Positions 1 to 19,857 of a stretch of DNA of 24,414 bases are shown piece after piece. Position 1 is the stretch's first letter. Every line of letters starts with the position of its first letter. Both the position numbers and the translations under genes were made by a program. The stretch is from a virus. The notes below the pieces were generated by a model that worked only from the letters and a program-made list of their open reading frames with translations, was not told where the DNA came from and did no database searches. Location: positions 1-24,414 of the IMG/VR virus record IMGVR_UViG_3300048573_000078; one strand, written 5' to 3'.

Positions 1-891
1 GACATTTTGTTCATGGAAAACCGTGATCGTGTGTATGACACAACTGTTTACGAATTGCGTGGCACTTACAACGTAAGCGACCAGGACTTTGACCTGAGCC
101 AATTTGGTTTGTTCTTAAATGCCGACACGCTGTTCATCACGTTCCACACCAATGAAATGGTAGAACGTCTTGGACGTAAACTTATGGCAGGTGACGTACT
201 TGAACTACCTCACTTGAATGATGACTTGCTACTCGATGCTAACGCAAAGAGCATTAACAAATTTTATGCCGTACAAGATGCGTCACGCTCAGCTGAAGGT
301 TTTGGTCCAACTTGGTGGCCGCACTTGTGGCGCATCAAAGCAGCACCTATCAATGACGCACAAGAATATCGTAGCTTGCTAGGTGACCCCGAAGACGAAG
401 ACAGCTTGAAAAACGCACTCAGTACATACAACAAAGAAATTGCAATTTCAAATGCTATTGTTGCAAGTGCAGAAGCAATTACACCAGCTGCTGGTTATAA
501 AGACACTGAATTTACTGATGCAACTTATGCTCCTGTTATTGAAGGATTTGACGGCTCTGGTAAATCAAATATTTCTGTTAACACTACTGAAAATGTAGCA
601 CAAGGCGGCGACACTAGTAATATCCCAACTGGGTTGACATTTCCTATTGCACCAGCACAAGGCGAATTGTTTGTTAGAACTGACTTCCAACCACAACGAC
701 TATTTGTATATCGCGGCAACAAGTGGCATCGACTAGCCGACAACTCTGCGGCAAATGGCTGGGCAACTACTGCAACAAATGCAGGACCGTATATCAATAA
801 CACAGCAACCACTACCACCGCAGACGGCACAACTATTGCACAACGTCAAGCACTAAGTGGTGTATTTGTAAAACCCAAGGCAGACAATTAA
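1..891 (+). CDS. 14: Neck protein, gp14-like (5' end outside window)
   Basis: The frame is open to the left edge, so only the C-terminal 296 residues are seen; an internal ATG at 13 is not taken as the start. The segment with the QFGLFLNADTLFITFH motif, followed by a GDVLELPHL motif and a WWPHLWRIKAAP stretch, resembles the 'FGxxxxDxxT ... GDLIYFP ... F-x-C' pattern of T4-type neck protein gp14 and its longer cyanophage versions. The C-terminal third is Thr/Asn-rich and carries an RTDFQPQRLFVYRGNKW motif of a kind common in phage virion proteins. In T4, gp14 with gp13 closes the filled head and docks the tail. The next structural gene is gp15, which fits the T4 order 13-14-15. The stop codon overlaps the ATG of the following endonuclease (TAATG). 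The assignment rests on weak motif similarity plus position; another large neck or head-completion protein is possible. Confidence 0.6.
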   Translation, partial: DILFMENRDRVYDTTVYELRGTYNVSDQDFDLSQFGLFLNADTLFITFHTNEMVERLGRKLMAGDVLELPHLNDDLLLDANAKSINKFYAVQDASRSAEGFGPTWWPHLWRIKAAPINDAQEYRSLLGDPEDEDSLKNALSTYNKEIAISNAIVASAEAITPAAGYKDTEFTDATYAPVIEGFDGSGKSNISVNTTENVAQGGDTSNIPTGLTFPIAPAQGELFVRTDFQPQRLFVYRGNKWHRLADNSAANGWATTATNAGPYINNTATTTTADGTTIAQRQALSGVFVKPKADN

Positions 892-1487
892 TGCACATTT
901 ATAAGATTACCAATTTAACCAATGGCAAACTATACATCGGTCAAACTGCGCAACGGAATCCCAAGATGCGCTGGTACGGGCATTTAGCAGATATGCGTAG
1001 TGGCAAGAAACTGCATTTATATAATAGCATGAGAAAATATGGGATTGAAATGTTTACCTGGGAAGTAATTGACTCTGCAAGTGACTTAAATGAACTGAAT
1101 CACAAGGAGCAGTATTGGCTAAACCAGTATAGAACGACCCATGCTGTATATAACTTAAGAGAGGCCGGGGACAATAAGACGCATAGTGCAGAGTCAATTG
1201 AAAAGATGCGTAATTCACAAAGAGCGGCTCATGCCAGGCGCAGGAATAACGGTGGCGATGGTGGATGGGCTCGACGGGACGGAGGACCTATGCTTGGAAA
1301 GCCCCATCCAAAAAAAGGCAAGCCATCTACTAAATGGTCAGACGAAGATAAACAGAGACATTCAGAAACCTGCTTAAATCGTAAGCAACGGGAAATAACT
1401 CCTGAGCTTAAGGAAAAGCTAGCCAACTCTAAAGGTAAAACTTGGAAGCTAGTTGATGGTAAGCGTGTTTGGATAGAAAAGGAATAA
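891..1487 (+). CDS. GIY-YIG homing endonuclease, free-standing
   Basis: A 198-residue protein. The N-terminal GIY-YIG nuclease domain spans about residues 1-95: IYKITN at 3-8, YIG at 15-17, the expected catalytic Arg at 27 with His31, the conserved Glu in HKEQYW at residue 73, and the closing YNLREAG motif. The remainder is basic and holds a NUMOD3-type DNA-binding helix (HSAESIEKMRNSQ, about 99-111) and a second related segment near 149-185. This is the layout of the Seg/I-TevI-type free-standing enzymes of T4-like phages, which cut a cognate allele and are copied in by repair. The ATG overlaps the stop of the gp14-like gene, and the stop lies 1 nt before gp15, so it is inserted exactly between two essential late genes and translated with them. 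No promoter of its own is visible. Confidence 0.9.
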   Translation: MHIYKITNLTNGKLYIGQTAQRNPKMRWYGHLADMRSGKKLHLYNSMRKYGIEMFTWEVIDSASDLNELNHKEQYWLNQYRTTHAVYNLREAGDNKTHSAESIEKMRNSQRAAHARRRNNGGDGGWARRDGGPMLGKPHPKKGKPSTKWSDEDKQRHSETCLNRKQREITPELKEKLANSKGKTWKLVDGKRVWIEKE

Positions 1488-2910: not shown

Positions 2911-3351
2911 ATGATTATTTATCTATACGTCAAGACACATAATATCACTGGGCTAAAATACCTCGGCAAGACTATCAACAAAGATCCATACAAGTATCCC
3001 GGTTCTGGCACATATTGGAAACTGCACCTGAAAGTACGGGGAGATAATTGCAAAACTGAGATTCTTAAGGAATGCACCTCAAAAGAAGAAGTGGCAGAAC
3101 TTGGAATATATTACAGTGAATTATGGAATATAGTTGAAAGTGATGATTGGGCTAATCTGATAGCAGAAAATGGTGATGGTGGTGGACACAAGCATACTAA
3201 GGAATCAATTGAAAAGACGCTAGCTACTAAAAAGGCAAATGGTACGATGAAGACTAATACGCTAGAATCAATTGCAAAGATGGTTGCTACACGACGGGCA
3301 AACGGTTCTTATAAACAATCACCAGACACTATTAAAAAATGCGCGCCGTAG
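2911..3351 (+). CDS. GIY-YIG-like homing endonuclease with NUMOD3 repeats
   Basis: A 146-residue protein. The N-terminus LYVKTHNITGLKYLGKT is a divergent GIY-YIG core in which YIG is replaced by YLG (residues 17-19). It is followed by a DPYKYPGSGTYWKLHL segment and a Glu in YYSELWNI (residue 70), the pattern of a small phage endonuclease family. The C-terminus has three related units of about 24 residues (HTKESIEKTLATKKANG, NTLESIAKMVATRRANG, QSPDTIKK), which read as NUMOD3 DNA-binding repeats; the third is cut short by the stop codon. There is no good ribosome site before the ATG. The last 13 nt overlap the Nudix gene start, so the reading frame ends inside its neighbour. The truncated last repeat may be the scar of insertion next to the Nudix gene. 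Active-site completeness is uncertain. Confidence 0.75.
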   Translation: MIIYLYVKTHNITGLKYLGKTINKDPYKYPGSGTYWKLHLKVRGDNCKTEILKECTSKEEVAELGIYYSELWNIVESDDWANLIAENGDGGGHKHTKESIEKTLATKKANGTMKTNTLESIAKMVATRRANGSYKQSPDTIKKCAP

Positions 3352-9999: not shown

Positions 10000-12900
10000 T
10001 TAGAATGTGCCGCCGTCAATATTGCTAGACTGATTCAACAAGCCGCCAGCACTTAGAGTAGCTGTTGGAGTTAAACGAACCATAACAAAGTCGTTGGCTT
10101 CTGGTGCTGCATCAAACACAATGCTTGATACGCCATCAACTGTACTCAATGTGTAAGAGTATGTTGGAGCTTGTACCAAACCGTTAACGAAAACTTGTGT
10201 GTTTTCGATGCTAGATACTTCAACGCCTGTGTCGAAACTTGAAGTTGTACCGTCACCAGTAAAGTTCATAGTTACAACAACAGTTGCAATTTGCTGCGGG
10301 AAGAACTTCTGTGCAGCACTGTTCCAGACCAATGTGTAACCATCGCTGATAATGCCGTCAAATTCAACGTCAGCTAAATCGCTTACGCTTGCAGCAGCAA
10401 TACGAGCGTCGGCGCGTGAGTCTGTGTAGTACTTGTTGATTTCCCCTTCGCTGATTGCATCAGTTGTAGGAACAGCAAATGTAAACACACCAGTACCTGC
10501 GCTGTAGCTCAAGATGTCAGTGTTGCCACTTGTCAACGAAACAGCACCACGAGCTTGTGCATTTGTAAAGTACTTGTTGGTTGCTGTAGCATCAGATACG
10601 TTGTCGGTAGTTAATGTAACAACACCGTCTTGTCCGTTTACGCTTTGAACAGCAGCCAATGTGCTAATAACACCTGTTGAGCTGTTGTATTGAATGTTTG
10701 CACCACCACTGATGGACGCTTTTGCACGACCTTCTGTGAAGAACAAGTTCAACGAACCTTCAGCAACATCATCTGTGCTCAAGTTGTCGATGCGTTCACC
10801 CAATGCTGTTTCGGCAGCAGTTGCACGGCCAATTTCAGTTGTCAAGTTGCCTTGAACAGCCAAATCACCTGCAACACGAGCAGCAGCTTCAATAACATCA
10901 GCAGCAGCATTTGCAGCTTCAGCAGCGGTTGCGCGGCTTACTTCAGCAGCAATAGCAGCAGCATTTGCAACTTCGGCAGCAGTAGCACGAGTAGCTTCAG
11001 CAGCAACAGCAGCAGTCAATACACCTTCAGCAGCAAGAGCACGAGCAGCTTCTGCATCAATGTTGGCTTGCAATGTGGTATCGGCACTAGTACGTGCTGC
11101 AACTTCACCACTGATGTTTGTTGCGTTTACAGCTTCAGCAGAGCTGGCGCGAGCAATCTCGGCAGCTAATGCAGTCGACAATGCGTTGTCTGCAACTAAA
11201 CGTGCAGCAGCTTCGTTTGCTACAGCAGTTGCGCTGGCGCCGGCCAAGTCACTGATAGCTTGAGTCAAGCTAGAATCAGCAGCGTTGTAAGCGTCGATGA
11301 TTTCTGTCAACGAATCCAATGCAGCAGGATCAATGTTGCTCAAGACATTGTCAATACGTGCGTCCAATGCAGTATCAGCAGCGACACGAGCAGCAGATTC
11401 TGAAGAAATTGCAGAAATGCGTGCAGTTTCTTCTGCAACCACAGCAGCAGCAACGGCTTGTTCTGCAGCAGTAGCACGAGCAACTTCAGTAGCCAAAGCG
11501 CTTGCAGCAGCAACATCAGCAGCTGAACGTGTAGCAGCTTCGGCAGCAATAGCAGCAGCGTTAGCTTGTTCAGCGGCACGAGCAGTTGTGGCTTCTGCGT
11601 CAATAGCAGCAGTCAATACGCCCTCGGCAGCAGTAGCACGAGTGCTTTCTGTAAGGATCGCAGTTGCATTTGCAACATCAGCAGCTGAACGTGTAGCAGC
11701 TTCGGCAGCAATAGCAGCAGCGTTAGCTTGTTCAGCGGCACGAGCAGTTGTGGCTTCGGCAGCAATAGCAGTTGCGTTTGCGGCTTCAGCAGCAAGAGCA
11801 CGAGTAGCTTCGGCTGTGATAGCAGCAGCGTTAGTAGCATCACCTGCGATACGAGCATCTTGTTCTGTTTCCAATGCTGTTTCTAATGCATCTTCGGCAG
11901 CAGTAGCACGAGTAACTTCGGCAGCAACAGCAGCAGCGTTAACAGCATCACCAGCGATGTGATGTGCGTGTTCTTCGGCAATGCCAGCAGCTAATTCGGC
12001 TTCGGCAGCAGTTGCGCGAGCAACTTCAGCAGCAATATCAGCAGCTAAATCTTCGTCGCCTGCAATACGAGCAGCAGTTTCGGCACTGTCAGCGGCAGCA
12101 CGAGCAGCTTCTTCAGCAGCAACAGCAGCAATACGAGCAGCAGTTTCAGCAGCAACAGCAGCAGTCAATACGCCTTCGGCAGCAGTTGCACGAGCAACTT
12201 CTGCATCAACGTCGACAGTAGCAGATGCAGCCAATGCCGTAATAGCGCCGTTAATTGTGTTGTCGGCATTTTGGAAAGCGCTAACGATTTCTGTCAACGA
12301 ATCCAATGCAGCAGGATCAATGTTGCTTAACACATTGTCAATACGTGCGCCCAATGCAGCGTCTGCGCTGGTACGAGCAGCAGTTTCAGCAGCAACAGCA
12401 TCAGTCAATACGCCTTCGGCAGCAGTAGCACGAGCTTCTTCTGCATCAACGTCAGCGGCACGAGCAGTAGCTTCAGCAGCAACAGCAGCAATACGAGCAG
12501 CTTCTTCGGTGGCCACCGCAGCAGTCAATACGCCTTCGGCAGCAGTTGCACGAGCAACTTCAGCAGCGATATCAGTGGAAAGAGCAGTGTCAGCGGCTAA
12601 GCGAGCAGCAGCTTCGGCACTAACAGCAACTGCACGAGCAGAAGCTTCGGCGCTAACAGCAGCGATACGAGCAGCTTCTTCGGCAGCAACAGCAGCAGTT
12701 AACACATTTTCAGCAGCAGTTGCACGAGCAACTTCAGCAGCGATAGCAGCAGCGTTTGCAGTTTCAGCGGCTGTAGCACGAGTAACTTCAGCAGCTAAAT
12801 TACCAGTCAATACGCCTTCGGCAGCAGCAGCACGAGTAGCTTCAGCAGCAACAGCAGCAGCGTTAGCTTGTTCAGCAGCAGTGGCACGAGTAACTTCAGC

Positions 12901-14958
12901 AGCTAAATTACCAGTCAATACGCCTTCGGCAGCAGTAGCACGAGTAGCTTCAGCAGCAACAGCAGCAGCGTTTGCAAGATCACCTGCTTCACGCAAACCA
13001 ACTTCGGTTGTTACACTGGCAGTAATAATTCCGTCAGCTGCGATGCGAGCAACAGTTTCAGCAGCCAAATCGCCAGTCAATACGCCTTCAGCAGCAGTTG
13101 CACGAGCAACTTCAGCAGCGATAGCGGTAGTCAATGCAGTGTCAGCAGCAGCACGAGCAGTGGCTTCTGCAACTACGCTAGCAGCAATAGTGTTGTCGCC
13201 AGCAATTCGAGCAGACTCTTCAGCAGCAACATCAATAGCAAATGCAGCGTCTGCGTCGGCGCGGGCCGTGGCTTCGGCAGTAACAGCAGCAGCGTTGGCA
13301 GCAGACAAGTCATTGATAGCTTGTTGCAAGTCTTGGTCGGCTGCGTCATAAGCAGCAATGATTTCTGTTAAGGAATCAAGAGCAGCAGGATCAATGTTGC
13401 TTAACACATTGTCAATGCGCTGACCTAATGCAGTGTCAGCAGCAGCACGAGCAGTGGCTTCAGCAGTAACAGCAGCAGCACGGGCAGTGGCTTCAGCAGT
13501 AACAGCAGCAGTCAATACGCCTTCGGCAGCAGTTGCACGAGCAACTTCAGTGGCCAAATCACCGGTTAATACGCCTTCGGCAGCAGTTGCACGAGCAACT
13601 TCAGCAGAGATAGCAGCAGCGTTGGCTTGTTCAGCACCAGCGGCACGAGCAGCTTCAGCAGCAACAGCAGCGGTCAATACGCCTTCAGCAGCAGTAGCAC
13701 GAGTAGCTTCGGCAGCAACAGCAGCCGCATTTGCAAGATCACCTGCAATACGAGCAGCTTCTTCGGCAGTTAAGTCAGATGCTAGCTCTGTTTCAGCAGC
13801 AGTGGCACGAGCAACTTCAGCAGCAACAGCAGCAGTCAATACGCCTTCGGCACCAGTTGCACGAGCAACTTCAGCAGCTAGATCGCTTGTCAATGTAGCA
13901 TCAGTAGCAGTGGCACGAGCAACTTCGGCAGCTAAGTTTGTTGACAATACGCCTTCGGCAGCAGTAGCACGAAAGGCTTCAGCTGACAAGTTAGCAGTCA
14001 ACGTGGCTTCAGCGGCACGAGCAGCTAAAGCTTCTGCGTCAACTGCGGCTTGAACAGCAGCAACAGCAGGAGCATTGGCAGCAATTGCGCGGCCAGCTGT
14101 AAAGTATTGGTTAGAACCTTCATCAATGTGCGATGTTGTTAAAACAACTACGCCAGTTTGACCATTAACGCTTTCAACTGTGGCAACAGAACTGATGATA
14201 CCAGTTGCAGAGTCATAGCTGATGTTTGAACCACCGCTTAAAGCAGCACGAGCACGAGCTGTTGTGAAGTATTGGTTAGTACCGCCTTCAACAATCTTGT
14301 CTGTGCTTGGGGTAACAAATGTAAACTGACCAGTTGAAGAACCGTAGCTTAAAATTTGTTGGTCATCGCTGTTTAAGCTGATGTCGTTACGAACAGCAGA
14401 TGTGTGGTAGTACTTGTTGGTTTGACCTTCTAAGATACCATCGCTTGTTGGGTGAACATACGTGAACAAACCAGTTGTAGAATTGTAGTTCAATACTGAT
14501 GTGTTGTCGCTTGCTAAACCAATGTCGCTGCGAACAGCAGCAGTGTGGTAGTACAAGTTTGTTATACCTTCTAGCACGTCATCTGTATTGTAGATCATCT
14601 GTGAGTTGATTTTTTCATCAACGTAACCCTTGGTCGATGCATGTAGATCGTCAGTTGGGTTGGCACTCAATGTCAAGAAGCCAGTCATTGTGTCGCCGTC
14701 TTTGGCAACTTTACCGGCTAACGATGTAGTTAGAGTAGCAGCAAAATTGGCATCATCGCCAATGGCTGCTGACAACTCGGCCAACGTATCTAATACTGCT
14801 GGTGCCGAGTTAATCAAATCGCTAACTGCTGAGCTTACGAAGCCAGTAGACGCGATTTGTGTTGTGTTGGTACCTGGGGCGGCTGTTACCGCTGTAGGTG
14901 TACCACGAAGATCAACTGAGTTAATAATCGAACTCGATCTTGCTTTGATAATAGGCAT
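10000..14958 (-). CDS. Giant tail fibre with 18-residue helical repeats
   Basis: A 1652-residue protein; ribosome site AGAGG lies about 9 nt before the ATG. Residues 1-125 include a GYVDEKIN fibre motif and an AVLDTLAELSAAIGDD helix. Residues 126-290 contain four beta repeats of about 50 residues (EGxTNxYYHTxAVRxDI, YxSxTGxFTxV). From about 292 to 1390 the chain is a very long Ala/Glu/Arg/Thr-rich helical shaft of 18-residue units such as AAEVARATAAEGVLTAAV, mixed with 11-residue units (TAEATARAAAV) and interrupted three times by an RIDNVLSNIDPAALDSLTEI cassette. The C-terminus returns to EGxxNxYF beta repeats, a GDGTTSSFD ... NGLVQAPTYSY beta module, and ends in NIDGGTF. It is likely a trimeric long tail fibre or one half of it. 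It may share a transcript with the 410-aa fibre, which ends 88 nt upstream. Confidence 0.88.
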   Translation of the reverse strand: MPIIKARSSSIINSVDLRGTPTAVTAAPGTNTTQIASTGFVSSAVSDLINSAPAVLDTLAELSAAIGDDANFAATLTTSLAGKVAKDGDTMTGFLTLSANPTDDLHASTKGYVDEKINSQMIYNTDDVLEGITNLYYHTAAVRSDIGLASDNTSVLNYNSTTGLFTYVHPTSDGILEGQTNKYYHTSAVRNDISLNSDDQQILSYGSSTGQFTFVTPSTDKIVEGGTNQYFTTARARAALSGGSNISYDSATGIISSVATVESVNGQTGVVVLTTSHIDEGSNQYFTAGRAIAANAPAVAAVQAAVDAEALAARAAEATLTANLSAEAFRATAAEGVLSTNLAAEVARATATDATLTSDLAAEVARATGAEGVLTAAVAAEVARATAAETELASDLTAEEAARIAGDLANAAAVAAEATRATAAEGVLTAAVAAEAARAAGAEQANAAAISAEVARATAAEGVLTGDLATEVARATAAEGVLTAAVTAEATARAAAVTAEATARAAADTALGQRIDNVLSNIDPAALDSLTEIIAAYDAADQDLQQAINDLSAANAAAVTAEATARADADAAFAIDVAAEESARIAGDNTIAASVVAEATARAAADTALTTAIAAEVARATAAEGVLTGDLAAETVARIAADGIITASVTTEVGLREAGDLANAAAVAAEATRATAAEGVLTGNLAAEVTRATAAEQANAAAVAAEATRAAAAEGVLTGNLAAEVTRATAAETANAAAIAAEVARATAAENVLTAAVAAEEAARIAAVSAEASARAVAVSAEAAARLAADTALSTDIAAEVARATAAEGVLTAAVATEEAARIAAVAAEATARAADVDAEEARATAAEGVLTDAVAAETAARTSADAALGARIDNVLSNIDPAALDSLTEIVSAFQNADNTINGAITALAASATVDVDAEVARATAAEGVLTAAVAAETAARIAAVAAEEAARAAADSAETAARIAGDEDLAADIAAEVARATAAEAELAAGIAEEHAHHIAGDAVNAAAVAAEVTRATAAEDALETALETEQDARIAGDATNAAAITAEATRALAAEAANATAIAAEATTARAAEQANAAAIAAEAATRSAADVANATAILTESTRATAAEGVLTAAIDAEATTARAAEQANAAAIAAEAATRSAADVAAASALATEVARATAAEQAVAAAVVAEETARISAISSESAARVAADTALDARIDNVLSNIDPAALDSLTEIIDAYNAADSSLTQAISDLAGASATAVANEAAARLVADNALSTALAAEIARASSAEAVNATNISGEVAARTSADTTLQANIDAEAARALAAEGVLTAAVAAEATRATAAEVANAAAIAAEVSRATAAEAANAAADVIEAAARVAGDLAVQGNLTTEIGRATAAETALGERIDNLSTDDVAEGSLNLFFTEGRAKASISGGANIQYNSSTGVISTLAAVQSVNGQDGVVTLTTDNVSDATATNKYFTNAQARGAVSLTSGNTDILSYSAGTGVFTFAVPTTDAISEGEINKYYTDSRADARIAAASVSDLADVEFDGIISDGYTLVWNSAAQKFFPQQIATVVVTMNFTGDGTTSSFDTGVEVSSIENTQVFVNGLVQAPTYSYTLSTVDGVSSIVFDAAPEANDFVMVRLTPTATLSAGGLLNQSSNIDGGTF
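11510..11595 (-). repeat. 86-bp perfect direct repeat, copy 1
   Basis: Identical over 86 bp to 11672-11757. The offset is 162 bp, exactly three 54-bp units, which points to a recent in-register duplication in the shaft. Confidence 0.9.
11672..11757 (-). repeat. 86-bp perfect direct repeat, copy 2
   Basis: Second copy of 11510-11595, in the same reading frame. It encodes the same segment with AAEQANAAAI and AEAATRSAADVA. Confidence 0.9.
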
Positions 14959-16758: not shown

Positions 16759-16766
16759 TATTTACC
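16759..16766 (-). promoter_or_regulatory. Weak candidate late promoter (GGTAAATA)
   Basis: 6 of 8 matches to TATAAATA on the - strand, 23 nt before the holin-like ATG and overlapping the end of the upstream gene. The spacing would give a leader of about 15-20 nt containing the AGGAG site. Weak evidence. Confidence 0.3.
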
Positions 16767-17001
16767 TTGAATTGCGTTTTAACTTTAGAAACTCTTGCAC
16801 TTTTGTGGCGACTGTGGACATAAAGTCTGTTCCTGGTTCAACTGCTTTCCATTTTCCCATTGGGCATTCTTCGGCAGCTATTGTTACTTTTAAATTAATC
16901 AAGCAACCGCATTGACGACACTGCTTTATAGACCGAGCATACCATTCGCATTTTTGGCAATGGCCTGCGCGTTCTAATCTAACTGGCATACTTGTAAACA
17001 T
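16762..17001 (-). CDS. Small Cys-rich protein, probable zinc ribbon
   Basis: 79 residues from the ATG at 17001; an ATG at 16989 (MPVRLERAGHC) is an equally good start. The open frame runs back to 17103, but that part lies inside the end of the endonuclease gene and the terminator hairpin and is unlikely to be translated. Cysteines are arranged as CxxC, then CxxCxC, then a CPMGKW motif (HCQKCEWY ... QCRQCGCLI ... EECPMGKW), a pattern seen in small T4-like and cyanophage proteins of unknown function. It probably binds one zinc ion. The 46-bp repeat copy ends 14 nt before its start, so it would originally have followed gp23 directly. Confidence 0.65.
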   Translation of the reverse strand: MFTSMPVRLERAGHCQKCEWYARSIKQCRQCGCLINLKVTIAAEECPMGKWKAVEPGTDFMSTVATKVQEFLKLKRNSR

Positions 17002-17014
17002 ACCATACTTAGCC

Positions 17015-17060
17015 ACAAGAAAAGGGCATAATGCCCTTTTCTTGGTTACATTCAACCAAC
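17015..17060 (-). repeat. 46-bp direct repeat, copy 2 (after endonuclease)
   Basis: Identical over all 46 bases to 18606-18651. This copy provides the last two codons and TGA stop of the endonuclease gene, followed by the hairpin. Confidence 0.95.
17016..17044 (-). terminator. Hairpin after the endonuclease gene
   Basis: A perfect 13-bp stem with a 3-nt loop (17016-17028 with 17032-17044), containing a TTTTC run in the 3' arm. It is the duplicate of the hairpin after gp23 and lies 8 nt after the endonuclease stop. Confidence 0.7.
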
Positions 17061-18554
17061 ATCGGCTGCGGTCCAAATCCACTTGGCATGCCCACAATCC
17101 CAAATTCGATATAACTTTTTATCTATCATCAATTGTCTTTCTGTTTTTAGCAAATCTAATTGATTTGTTATCAGTGATTTTTTGGTAAATTTTGATCGAT
17201 GAAATCGTTGTGTAAAATCCGTATACGAGTAACTTGGTTTAATAGCTTGTGCAGTTGCTAAAAATCCCAGTTTATTATAAACTTGGCCAGTGCCCCATCG
17301 TAAATCACAATAAGATACAATAGATGCTGGATTGTGTTCCTTGACAAATGCAGATAACAATTTACTTGCGCCGCCGATAACGTTGCCAGTACTACAGTAA
17401 CGAATCAATTCGTAATCAGCAGTGCGATCATATCTGGGCTTTCCAAATGTCATCACAGCCAGCAATTTTCCTTGGTAAAAGCAACCATACGCCACTTTAA
17501 AAACTGCATGCCCTTGGATGTGATGTTTTTCCACAAACTCTTTGGCCAAAGAGTGTGAAACTTTTTCAACTTTGCATTTTCTTGCCTGGTATCTGTCTGA
17601 TTCTCCTAATATGCTTTTGAGCCGACTAATAACTATACTGCGCTTGGTAAGCCACTCATCTTCAAATATGGTCACAAGACGATAGCCTTGTGCTTGACAT
17701 AATTTTAATTTGTTCAAATGATAAGCTGGCTCAATCTTATGCATCTCTGAATGCCAGTACAATCCGCAGTATTCTATTGCAATCTTAAGCGACGGGATTA
17801 GTATATCAATTTCATAAGGGTTAATTGTGGTGCGATCCGATTGAATCACTGTACAATCAACTGTGCTGCACACAAAGTCATAAACTTCTTGCTCTTGTGC
17901 ACTGGTATAAACAGGAATGTATGGGTTACATATTTTGCATTTGGGCACATGCCCGTTGTCAATGTAATCAGAAAATACATTATTGCAGCTATTGCAGTTG
18001 AATTTATAGTAAGTCTGGTTGCTTACTCCGGTGTATTCCTGTTCGCTTGTTGCAAACTCAATATTGGCCACTTGCTTGAATTTTTGATTCAGACGTTGGT
18101 AAGGAGTCTGCGCAGGCAACTTTACAGTTTTGATCTTTGAACTATAATACGTTGCATGCTGGGCCAATGCATGTGCAGTTTGTCCAGCATTTGTTACTCC
18201 ATAAGTCTGCAAGTTGGTTGCAGCACGTTTGTGATTGATTGCTAGTTGTTGTTCAGCGGTTAACTGACTCTTTGTCTCAGTTACTTTTGCACTAATTGCT
18301 GCATTGGCACATGCACATGTTGCGGCGCGGCCGCAAAATCCATATCCCTGCGTGATTGACTTGAATTTTTTGTTATTTCCATGTGTGCACTGCAATGACT
18401 CTGTGTGAATTGCATTGTATATGGTTTCAGACAGATTATCAGATGCATATAAAGTATTCTTCTGCACCCAAGTCCACAACTCTTGATTATTTTTTACAAT
18501 TTTGCCAAAATGCTTTGGTTTTTTGGCAATAAGTTCAACAATTTTATTTTTCAT
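17052..18554 (-). CDS. Large homing endonuclease, Vsr/EDxHD-like
   Basis: A 500-residue protein. The N-terminal third has scattered Cys/His (CTHGNN, CGRAATCACA) and a TNLQTYGVTNAGQ motif common in phage endonucleases. A zinc ribbon follows (C187, C190, C206, C209). Residues about 220-315 are a Vsr/PD-(D/E)XK-like nuclease: YEIDILIPSLKIAIEYCG with D250 and E261, YWHSE with H268, then HLNKLKLCQAQGYRLVTIFEDEW. Residues about 322-433 form an associated domain (KEFVEKHHIQGHA ... AVMTFGKPRY ... GGASKLL), and the end carries the family tail YRIWDCGHAKWIW. This is the architecture of phage EDxHD-type (I-Bth0305I-like) homing endonucleases. It lies just downstream of the capsid gene, bounded by a 46-bp direct repeat. 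No Shine-Dalgarno precedes the ATG. Confidence 0.85.
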   Translation of the reverse strand: MKNKIVELIAKKPKHFGKIVKNNQELWTWVQKNTLYASDNLSETIYNAIHTESLQCTHGNNKKFKSITQGYGFCGRAATCACANAAISAKVTETKSQLTAEQQLAINHKRAATNLQTYGVTNAGQTAHALAQHATYYSSKIKTVKLPAQTPYQRLNQKFKQVANIEFATSEQEYTGVSNQTYYKFNCNSCNNVFSDYIDNGHVPKCKICNPYIPVYTSAQEQEVYDFVCSTVDCTVIQSDRTTINPYEIDILIPSLKIAIEYCGLYWHSEMHKIEPAYHLNKLKLCQAQGYRLVTIFEDEWLTKRSIVISRLKSILGESDRYQARKCKVEKVSHSLAKEFVEKHHIQGHAVFKVAYGCFYQGKLLAVMTFGKPRYDRTADYELIRYCSTGNVIGGASKLLSAFVKEHNPASIVSYCDLRWGTGQVYNKLGFLATAQAIKPSYSYTDFTQRFHRSKFTKKSLITNQLDLLKTERQLMIDKKLYRIWDCGHAKWIWTAADVG

Positions 18555-18565
18555 TTAGATAGTTT

Positions 18566-18595
18566 AACATACGAGCATGTAAAAGTATATATCAA
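18566..18595 (-). promoter_or_regulatory. Possible sigma70-like promoter for the endonuclease
   Basis: TTGATA (18590-18595), an 18-nt spacer, then TATGTT (18566-18571) on the - strand, placing the transcript start only a few bases before the ATG at 18554. That would give an almost leaderless mRNA, consistent with the lack of a ribosome site. Weak consensus and no experimental support. Confidence 0.3.
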
Positions 18596-18605
18596 AATTT
18601 CTTCA

Positions 18606-18651
18606 ACAAGAAAAGGGCATAATGCCCTTTTCTTGGTTACATTCAACCAAC
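18606..18651 (-). repeat. 46-bp direct repeat, copy 1 (after gp23)
   Basis: First copy of the repeat that bounds the endonuclease gene, beginning 10 nt after the gp23 stop in transcription order. The two copies are 1591 bp apart and match without a single difference. Confidence 0.95.
18607..18635 (-). terminator. Hairpin after the major capsid gene
   Basis: A perfect 13-bp stem with a 3-nt loop (18607-18619 with 18623-18635). On the - strand it is followed by TTGAAGAAATTTT. It is the likely terminator or 3'-end stabiliser of the capsid mRNA. Confidence 0.75.
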
Positions 18652-18660
18652 CCTATTGGA

Positions 18661-19857
18661 TTAGATGAATGATAAGTTTGCTGCGTCAATAGCAATTGTG
18701 TTAACGTAGTCAGCAGCGTTACCCAAAGAAGATGCGCTGTTTGACAACTCAACATAGCCATAACGTGTCATGAAGCTAACTGTTGGTTCAAATGTGTTTG
18801 GATCTAAAACAACACCGCTGCTCATCAATGGAATGTATGGGCAGTAGAATGCTGGAGCGTCCATTTCGTTAGCACCTTTGTAACCGATAAGGATCGGAGC
18901 TGCATCGCCTGCATAGTGGTTAACGTAAACACGAACTGAACTGTTTAATGTACCAACGAACTTGGTGTTTGTTGGAGCTTCAAATGTACCTTCTGTTGTA
19001 CGAGCAAATGCGCTTGTAGTAGCAGATTGTAAGATTGTCAATGCTGTTGGAGAAACTACGATGTAGTTACCAGCACCACGACGTGTACGGCTAGCGATGT
19101 CGTTAGCAGCACGGTTAACCAATACGGCCAAAGCAGCGTGTTGGTCACCAACGAAGTTAGCAACGCCAGAAACAGCGGCTTGATCGTATGTACCGTAAGC
19201 TGTACCAGCCAAGCTGATCAACGAACCGATAACTTCTTGGTCGATTTCAGCTGTAATTTCTTGAGCCAATGCAGCCATGATTTCTGCTTCAACGTCAACA
19301 CCGTGGATAGCTTGTGCGTCTTGAGCAGCTTCAAATGTCCAACGAGCAGACAACTTACGGCTCTTAGCTTCAACAGTCTCTTTCAAGATCTGAATGTTCA
19401 TCTTCTTACCGCCAGCACCTTCTAGAGAAGCAGTAGAAGCACCTTTACCACCAGCACCAGAGTACTGAGTAGCAATGCTGAATGGGCTTAGAGCCTCGTC
19501 ACCAGCAGTTACGGCTTTACCGATGTTGCCAGATTCGTTTGTTGCAGCGTCTGCACCTTCAGCGTAACGAACGCGCAATGTGTGGATCTGAGAAACTGGA
19601 CCTTGCATTGGTTGAACACCAACTAATTCGTTAGCGATAGTTGTTGGCATAACGCGACGAATAACAGGTAAAATAACCTTGTTCAAAACTGCAATGTTAC
19701 CAGAAGCTGTACCGCCGGCTGTTGCTGTTTCTGTCAAATACTTCTTTGTATTTTCCAAGCAGACTTCCATTGTAGTCTTGCGTTGACCTTGTAGGCCTTC
19801 TGTAAGGGCTTGCTTGGTAGCAGACCAGTTTTTGCTTTCAAATAGAGCTTGTGACAT
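18661..19857 (-). CDS. 23: Major capsid protein gp23
   Basis: A 398-residue protein. The segment ILPVIRRVMPTTIANELVGV, followed by QPM.GPV..IHTLRVRY, is the hallmark of T4-type gp23. Gp23 hexamers build the shell. T4 gp23 is 521 residues; this is one of the shorter forms. T4 gp21 cleaves after L/I-x-E; LTE at 41-43, just before a TATAGGTAS linker, is a likely maturation site, with LTE at 18-20 as an alternative. A strong AGGAG lies 7 nt before the ATG, and the gene starts 14 nt after the scaffold stop. The hairpin beyond the stop isolates this highly expressed gene from the endonuclease. Confidence 0.97.
   Translation of the reverse strand: MSQALFESKNWSATKQALTEGLQGQRKTTMEVCLENTKKYLTETATAGGTASGNIAVLNKVILPVIRRVMPTTIANELVGVQPMQGPVSQIHTLRVRYAEGADAATNESGNIGKAVTAGDEALSPFSIATQYSGAGGKGASTASLEGAGGKKMNIQILKETVEAKSRKLSARWTFEAAQDAQAIHGVDVEAEIMAALAQEITAEIDQEVIGSLISLAGTAYGTYDQAAVSGVANFVGDQHAALAVLVNRAANDIASRTRRGAGNYIVVSPTALTILQSATTSAFARTTEGTFEAPTNTKFVGTLNSSVRVYVNHYAGDAAPILIGYKGANEMDAPAFYCPYIPLMSSGVVLDPNTFEPTVSFMTRYGYVELSNSASSLGNAADYVNTIAIDAANLSFI

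What the first reader, a model, noticed from the sequence alone, without database searches (positions are those of the whole stretch)
17015..18651. Vsr-type homing endonuclease bounded by perfect 46-bp repeats that carry its stop codon and a terminator
Seen: 17015-17060 and 18606-18651 are identical over 46 bases in direct orientation. Copy 1 holds the hairpin after the capsid gene; copy 2 supplies the last codons and TGA of the endonuclease and the same hairpin. Recombination between the copies would remove the endonuclease exactly and leave gp23, one hairpin and the Cys-rich gene. Inference: the gene entered after gp23 and duplicated the terminator, so that gp23 keeps its 3' end and the endonuclease gains one. 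This is an economical, self-insulating insertion. Either target duplication during break repair or use of a common terminator as recombination homology could explain it.
Basis: partly seen in the sequence, partly recalled or inferred. Interest (0 to 1): 0.78.

Follow-up and report, generated by a model that had tools for sequence, protein, structure and literature searches.

The report
Homing gene duplicates capsid-gene terminator
A selfish DNA-cutting gene has settled directly behind a phage's capsid gene and left a displaced second copy of that gene's 'stop' signals, which it now uses as its own ending; the same trace recurs in related phages and mirrors a pattern known from fungal mitochondria.

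Summary
The 46-bp direct repeats are real and perfect. Genes run on the minus strand. The copy at 18606-18651 follows gp23; the copy at 17015-17060 supplies the endonuclease's last two codons, its TGA and its hairpin.

About 50 relatives with 84-98% identical gp23 carry one hairpin, no endonuclease, and the Cys-rich gene next. This is an insertion.

The endonuclease is EDxHD/Vsr-like (PDB 3r3p, E=3e-6) and belongs to a lineage tied to this locus: 32 of 36 full-length homologs lie beside gp23, against 2 of 42 partial ones.

Displaced gp23 3' ends recur: 6 of 40 endonuclease-bearing gp23 loci against 0 of 137 without. L137 keeps a fossil: 20 gp23 codons plus a different terminator, with 12 base changes, all synonymous. 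At tail-sheath loci (L094, L093/L351, L084) the endonuclease also takes its stop codon from the repeat.

Best reading: repair of a break near the target gene's 3' end inserted the endonuclease and displaced the native 3' end/terminator behind it. Known in fungal mitochondria (PMC3630166); I found no phage report. The cut site is undetermined.

The parts
18661..19857 (-). gp23 major capsid gene, 398 aa
   Evidence: Pfam Gp23 E=8e-97, phrog_138
18709..18723 (-). GGTAACGCTGCTGAC, last strongly conserved DNA block of gp23, starting 63 nt before the end of the stop codon; in L137 the displaced copy begins exactly here (candidate break region, inferred)
   Evidence: 1.52 bits mean conservation, falling to 0.63 downstream; L137 remnant. 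No convincing HEG+/HEG- base association found
18606..18651 (-). 46-bp repeat, gp23-proximal copy: 3' UTR plus hairpin (18607-18635)
17061..18605 (-). inserted segment between the copies (1545 bp): leader plus endonuclease ORF lacking its own stop codon
   Evidence: absent from about 50 relatives
18566..18595 (-). sigma-70-like TTGATA-18-TATGTT, possible endonuclease promoter (weak)
   Evidence: 9 of 12 consensus match, number of such sites not above shuffles
17052..18554 (-). free-standing EDxHD/Vsr-like homing endonuclease, 500 aa
   Evidence: phrog_3339 homing endonuclease E=1e-106; profile hit to I-Bth0305I 3r3p E=3e-6; AF2 pLDDT 88
17595..17909 (-). nuclease domain (residues 216-320)
   Evidence: 3r3p alignment; 3hrl Z 12.5 over residues 216-318
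17064..17588 (-). C-terminal GNAT/Mom-like domain (residues 323-497)
   Evidence: phage Mu Mom 8bv8 Foldseek E=6e-6, Z 13.1; phrog_1384
17015..17060 (-). 46-bp repeat, displaced copy: supplies GTT GGT TGA (17052-17060) and hairpin (17016-17044) to the endonuclease and abuts the native downstream gene
   Evidence: right flank matches empty sites
16762..17001 (-). Cys-rich small gene, direct downstream neighbour of gp23 in the close endonuclease-less relatives
   Evidence: phrog_13558 E=7e-11

Best explanation
A free-standing EDxHD (Vsr-like, Hef-like) homing endonuclease of a lineage specialised on the gp23 3' locus was inserted directly behind gp23's terminator during repair of a DNA break near the 3' end of gp23. 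The gp23 side of the break was rebuilt through its 3' UTR and terminator before joining the endonuclease DNA. The other side kept its original 3' UTR and terminator, which now lies displaced behind the endonuclease. The endonuclease DNA arrived without its own stop codon, so its frame runs into the displaced copy and uses that copy's TGA and hairpin. Shown: the repeats, the empty sites, recurrent displaced gp23 and tail-sheath 3' ends, stop codons supplied by the repeat. Inferred: a break made by this enzyme or a relative near the gp23 3' end, the order of repair steps, and that the 100% identity reflects either a near-identical template or later hairpin-to-hairpin conversion.
For: Empty single-hairpin alleles in about 50 relatives, alignable across the joined flanks. 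Same site occupied in PA5oct-like phages and in 32 of 36 full-length homologs. Displaced gp23 3' ends at E<=1e-8 in 6 of 40 loci with the endonuclease against 0 of 137 without, Fisher p=1e-4, cross-locus control 0 of 177. L137: displaced 20 gp23 codons identical in protein with 12 all-synonymous base changes and a distinct terminator (chance of all synonymous about 8e-9 on a single-change count). L128 (87 nt, from 29 nt before the end of gp23) and L111: the first of two tandem endonucleases ends in a displaced gp23 3' end/terminator that gives it its stop. L112: 77/77 nt. Second target gene: L094 endonuclease fused in frame to the duplicated last codons MNTGAIAAGL* of the tail sheath; L093, L351 and L084 take stop codons from duplicated hairpin or 3' sequence beside the sheath gene.
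Against: In the window the two copies are identical, so they do not show separate donor and recipient origins as L137 does. The window's copy contains no gp23 coding sequence; it begins 9 nt after the stop. Most endonuclease-bearing gp23 loci (at least 32 of 40) show no duplication. No base near the putative break convincingly distinguishes occupied from empty sites. No cleavage data exist.
Confidence: 0.62

Rival explanations
1. Terminator hairpins act as mobile or shared recombination homology: the endonuclease arrived already followed by a hairpin, or hairpins recombine with each other, as with T4-type promoter/stem-loop cassettes. The duplication then reflects hairpin exchange rather than a displaced gene end.
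For: In L351 the two 28-bp hairpins flanking the endonuclease are exact reverse complements; in L094 the two 29-bp hairpin cores also are, differing at one centre base; L093 has identical copies one base different from L351. So hairpin exchange or flipping seems to occur.
Against: The repeats extend beyond the hairpin into gene-specific 3' UTR (window, L112) and into coding sequence (L137, L128, L094). The window hairpin has no third copy in the window and no other exact match in viral contigs apart from the near-identical contig.
Confidence: 0.2
2. Target-site duplication: staggered nicks about 46 nt apart followed by fill-in, as in transposition.
For: Perfect direct repeats flank a precise insertion; L112 77/77 and L094 93/94 are also near-perfect.
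Against: Repeat lengths vary widely (23 to 94 nt). No homing endonuclease known to me makes so wide a stagger (own knowledge). L137's copies descend from two different gp23 lineages, not from one duplicated target.
Confidence: 0.13
3. The repeat is chance, an assembly artefact, or a duplication unrelated to the endonuclease.
For: None found; the identity alone cannot exclude a later unrelated duplication.
Against: Shuffle expectation 0; second contig with the same structure; statistical association with the endonuclease.
Confidence: 0.03

Closest known systems
Fungal mitochondrial mobile ORFs that duplicate a host gene's carboxy-terminal end (Allomyces atp6; Glomus atp6, atp9, cox2, nad3; PMC3630166)
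   Same: A homing endonuclease gene sits behind a host gene; a second copy of the host gene's 3' end lies behind the endonuclease; the copies can differ mainly at synonymous sites (as in L137).
   Different: Here in dsDNA phages, an EDxHD instead of LAGLIDADG or GIY-YIG enzyme; insertion is behind the terminator, the displaced piece is often only 3' UTR plus terminator, and the endonuclease takes its stop codon from it.
EDxHD homing endonuclease I-Bth0305I (PDB 3r3p)
   Same: Related nuclease domain (profile E=3e-6).
   Different: 3r3p is annotated as a mobile intron protein; the window enzyme is free-standing and carries a GNAT/Mom-like C-terminal domain.
Free-standing T4-type homing endonucleases (Seg, Mob, Hef; review PMC2988022)
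   Same: Free-standing genes beside conserved phage genes, spread by break repair with co-conversion of flanks.
   Different: The term search of that review found no passage on duplicated host-gene 3' ends or displaced terminators.
T4-type mobile promoter/stem-loop regulatory cassettes (PeSLs; recalled, paper not held)
   Same: Stem-loops in intergenic regions that can serve as recombination homology.
   Different: Here the repeated unit is gene-specific and includes 3' UTR or coding sequence.

Membership tests
EDxHD / Vsr-like homing endonuclease (I-Bth0305I family) | Nuclease domain homologous to I-Bth0305I | tested here: met
   Family profile A2 hits 3r3p at E=3e-6 over profile positions 251-326
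EDxHD / Vsr-like homing endonuclease (I-Bth0305I family) | Conserved acidic/His catalytic residues | tested here: inconclusive
   E221, D250, E261, W267, H268, H279 and K282 are invariant in 22 homologs but were not mapped residue by residue on a solved active site
EDxHD / Vsr-like homing endonuclease (I-Bth0305I family) | Site-specific cleavage of a long target | not testable with these tools
   needs purified enzyme
Free-standing homing endonuclease | Sporadic presence at one site with empty alleles in close relatives | tested here: met
Free-standing homing endonuclease | Demonstrated homing in co-infection | not testable with these tools
   needs phage crosses
Hef family | Sequence homology to Hef of phage U5 | not tested
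   Homologs are annotated 'Hef-like', but the U5 paper was not held and its sequence was not compared
Gene-end-displacing homing elements (fungal mORF type) | Duplicate of host gene 3' end behind the endonuclease | tested here: met
   Window: 3' UTR and terminator only; coding 3' end in L137, L128, L094
Gene-end-displacing homing elements (fungal mORF type) | Incoming host-gene end of foreign origin, native end displaced | tested here: inconclusive
   L137 copies come from two lineages (12 synonymous changes), but relatives do not clearly say which copy is native; window copies are identical
Intrinsic terminator | Stable GC-rich hairpin followed by a U-run | tested here: inconclusive
   Strong hairpin, z -5.9, short mixed U-tract; not listed by the terminator scan

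The most novel reading that the evidence does not exclude
A whole class of phage homing endonucleases invades by cutting conserved structural genes near their 3' ends and, at each landing, rebuilds the host gene's end in front and displaces the old end and terminator behind itself, using the displaced end as its own stop codon and terminator; duplicated terminators then stay alike by hairpin-to-hairpin conversion.
Probability: 0.35. Interest if true: 0.75.

Novelty: new variant of a known kind. Interest (0 to 1): 0.6.

Why it matters
How free-standing homing endonucleases land beside essential genes without harming them is poorly known. Displaced gene ends are fossils that record where the break was repaired and which phage lineages took part, so the invasion mechanism becomes testable from sequence and at the bench. 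It would also link phage and fungal mitochondrial homing elements through the same outcome, reached with different nucleases, and would explain why the C-terminal tails of these endonucleases and their terminators vary from locus to locus.

Tried and rejected
Search for an exact empty allele: the hairpin occurs in only one other IMG/VR contig, which carries the same insertion. Flanking repeats in PA5oct, MIJ3 and Callisto and in 11 other annotated phage loci: none convincing. A search for bases near the putative cut that separate occupied from empty gp23 genes gave nothing beyond what 300 tests and relatedness would give. Which L137 gp23 end is native: the displaced end's best match is L211 (91.8% over 61 nt) and the current end's matches in other phages are 84-89% (L216, L193); not decisive. 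Mosaic pattern along window gp23: the last block matches L011 (1 mismatch) better than the overall closer L004 (9), but L010 resembles the window throughout, so no co-conversion tract can be claimed. Codon composition does not mark the endonuclease as foreign (GC3 0.344 against 0.351 for gp23). The Pfam hit MTES_1575 is below its cut-off. 3r3p does not appear among the listed fold matches, which says nothing against the relation.

Full report
Observation. The two 46-bp copies are exact and direct and far beyond chance. The genes lie on the minus strand: gp23 (18661-19857), then one copy (18606-18651), a 51-nt leader, the endonuclease ORF (18554-17052), the second copy (17060-17015) and the Cys-rich gene. 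The last codons of the ORF, GTT GGT TGA, lie inside the second copy. A second contig, 99.95% identical over 8 kb with four differences, has the same structure.

Empty sites. In about 50 relatives with 84-98% identical gp23, the capsid gene is followed by one hairpin of variable sequence and then by the Cys-rich gene, with no endonuclease. Joining the window's flanks gives a sequence that aligns with these alleles from gp23 through the hairpin to the Cys-rich gene. The gp23-proximal copy is therefore in its native left context and the other copy in its native right context; the 1545 bp between them are the insert.

The protein. It matches the PHROG homing endonuclease family at E=1e-106, and a profile of 22 homologs matches the EDxHD enzyme I-Bth0305I (3r3p) at E=3e-6. 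The model (pLDDT 88) has an endonuclease-like domain at residues 216-318 (3hrl, Z 12.5) and a C-terminal GNAT fold resembling phage Mu Mom. 'Vsr-type' is a fair label.

A locus-bound lineage. The best annotated homologs, 36% identical over 98% of the length, are in Pseudomonas phage PA5oct and relatives, where the gene also lies about 120 nt behind gp23. In IMG/VR, 32 of 36 full-length homologs lie near gp23, against 2 of 42 homologs that share only the C-terminal part. Most start 93-137 nt after the gp23 stop, directly behind its hairpin. Three (L114-L116) and several others (L217, L224, L237, L239) are in opposite orientation at the same locus. This was not selected for: the search used the endonuclease only. 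The gp23 loci were fetched with gp23 and supply the endonuclease-less set.

Displaced gene ends. I compared each gp23 3' region (150 nt of gene plus 110 nt) with the following 3.4 kb. After removal of near-duplicates, 6 of 40 loci with the endonuclease and 0 of 137 without have a repeat at E<=1e-8 (Fisher p=1e-4; cross-locus control 0 of 177). L137 is the clearest: 2 kb behind the gp23 stop lies a second gp23 end, GNAADYLSKVGIDSSTLKFY*, followed by its own different terminator. Against the current gp23 end it has 12 base changes, all synonymous, which neutral decay of a duplicate would give with a chance of about 8e-9 on a simple single-change count. Both ends were most likely under selection as gp23 in different phage lineages. 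L112 has a 77/77 copy from the last codons of gp23 through the terminator. L128 and L111 carry two endonucleases in tandem; the first ends in a displaced gp23 3' end or terminator that supplies its stop codon.

Other targets. In L094 a related endonuclease behind a tail-sheath gene ends in frame with the sheath's own last codons, MNTGAIAAGL*, within a 94-nt repeat with one mismatch. L093, L351 and L084 have endonucleases beside the sheath gene whose stop codons lie in a duplicated hairpin or 3' sequence. The sheath identity rests on its sequence and position beside tail genes as I read them, not on a profile search. So the window is one of several cases in which the endonuclease borrows its stop codon from the displaced copy.

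Mechanism. Variable left ends (63 nt before to 9 nt after the gp23 stop) and a right end at or just behind the terminator fit repair of a break near the 3' end of the gene: one side is rebuilt through the terminator and joined to the endonuclease, the other side, more or less trimmed, keeps the native end (inference). The last conserved DNA block of gp23 (GGTAACGCTGCTGAC) is where the L137 copy starts, and is a candidate, not a demonstrated, cut region; no convincing immunity-like base difference was found.

Why identical copies. L093 and L351 share the same insertion site with about 80% identical flanks and 51% identical endonucleases. Within each genome the two hairpin cores are identical (direct in L093, inverted in L351), but they differ by one base between the genomes. 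In L094 the single mismatch is a flip of the palindrome's centre. Either hairpins are homogenised after insertion or insertions are repeated. Identity in the window therefore does not date the event, and it cannot be said whether the template was the same phage or a near-identical one.

Literature. Duplicated host-gene ends behind homing endonucleases are described in fungal mitochondria (PMC3630166, which cites the Allomyces atp6 case). Term searches inside two phage homing papers (PMC2988022; PMC10448857) and of the library gave no report of it in phages; subscription papers, and the Hef/SegH paper, were not held, so absence of a report is not certain.

Limits. The statistics rest on 40 occupied loci, some of which share ancestry. 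Cleavage, termination and homing were not tested. The cultured phages examined show the location but not the duplication.

Noticed in passing
window 891-1487 (+) and 2911-3351 (+): Two GIY-YIG-type homing endonuclease genes (phrog_314), so this 24-kb window holds three homing endonucleases of two classes.
   Followed up: partly
window 17064-17588 (-): The endonuclease's C-terminal domain is a GNAT fold like phage Mu Mom (8bv8 Z 13.1), with a conserved GGASKL loop; why a homing endonuclease carries an acyltransferase fold is open.
   Followed up: partly
L351 2910-2937 and 4528-4555; L094 hairpins: Duplicated hairpins are exact reverse complements of each other in their palindromic cores, suggesting hairpin flipping or conversion between copies.
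   Followed up: partly
L111 1136-4503; L128 1032-4563: Two different homing endonucleases in tandem behind gp23, separated by a displaced gp23 3' end or terminator: repeated invasion of one locus.
   Followed up: partly
L202 3188-3600: Endonuclease with a large internal deletion between N- and C-terminal parts, still followed by a duplicated terminator: a decaying insertion.
   Followed up: no
L360 (Campylobacter phage F352), L364 (Tenacibaculum phage PTm5), L359 (CP20): Distant homologs in cultured phages also sit directly behind the major capsid gene or converge on the tail-sheath gene, without repeats.
   Followed up: partly
window 17001-17014 and homologous sites in relatives: A TAAGTA(T) motif between terminator and Cys-rich gene is conserved in most close relatives and may be a late promoter.
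   Followed up: no
window 10000-14958 (-): Very long Ala-rich repetitive ORF (1652 aa), probably a tail fibre; relatives have many internal direct repeats in the same region.
   Followed up: no
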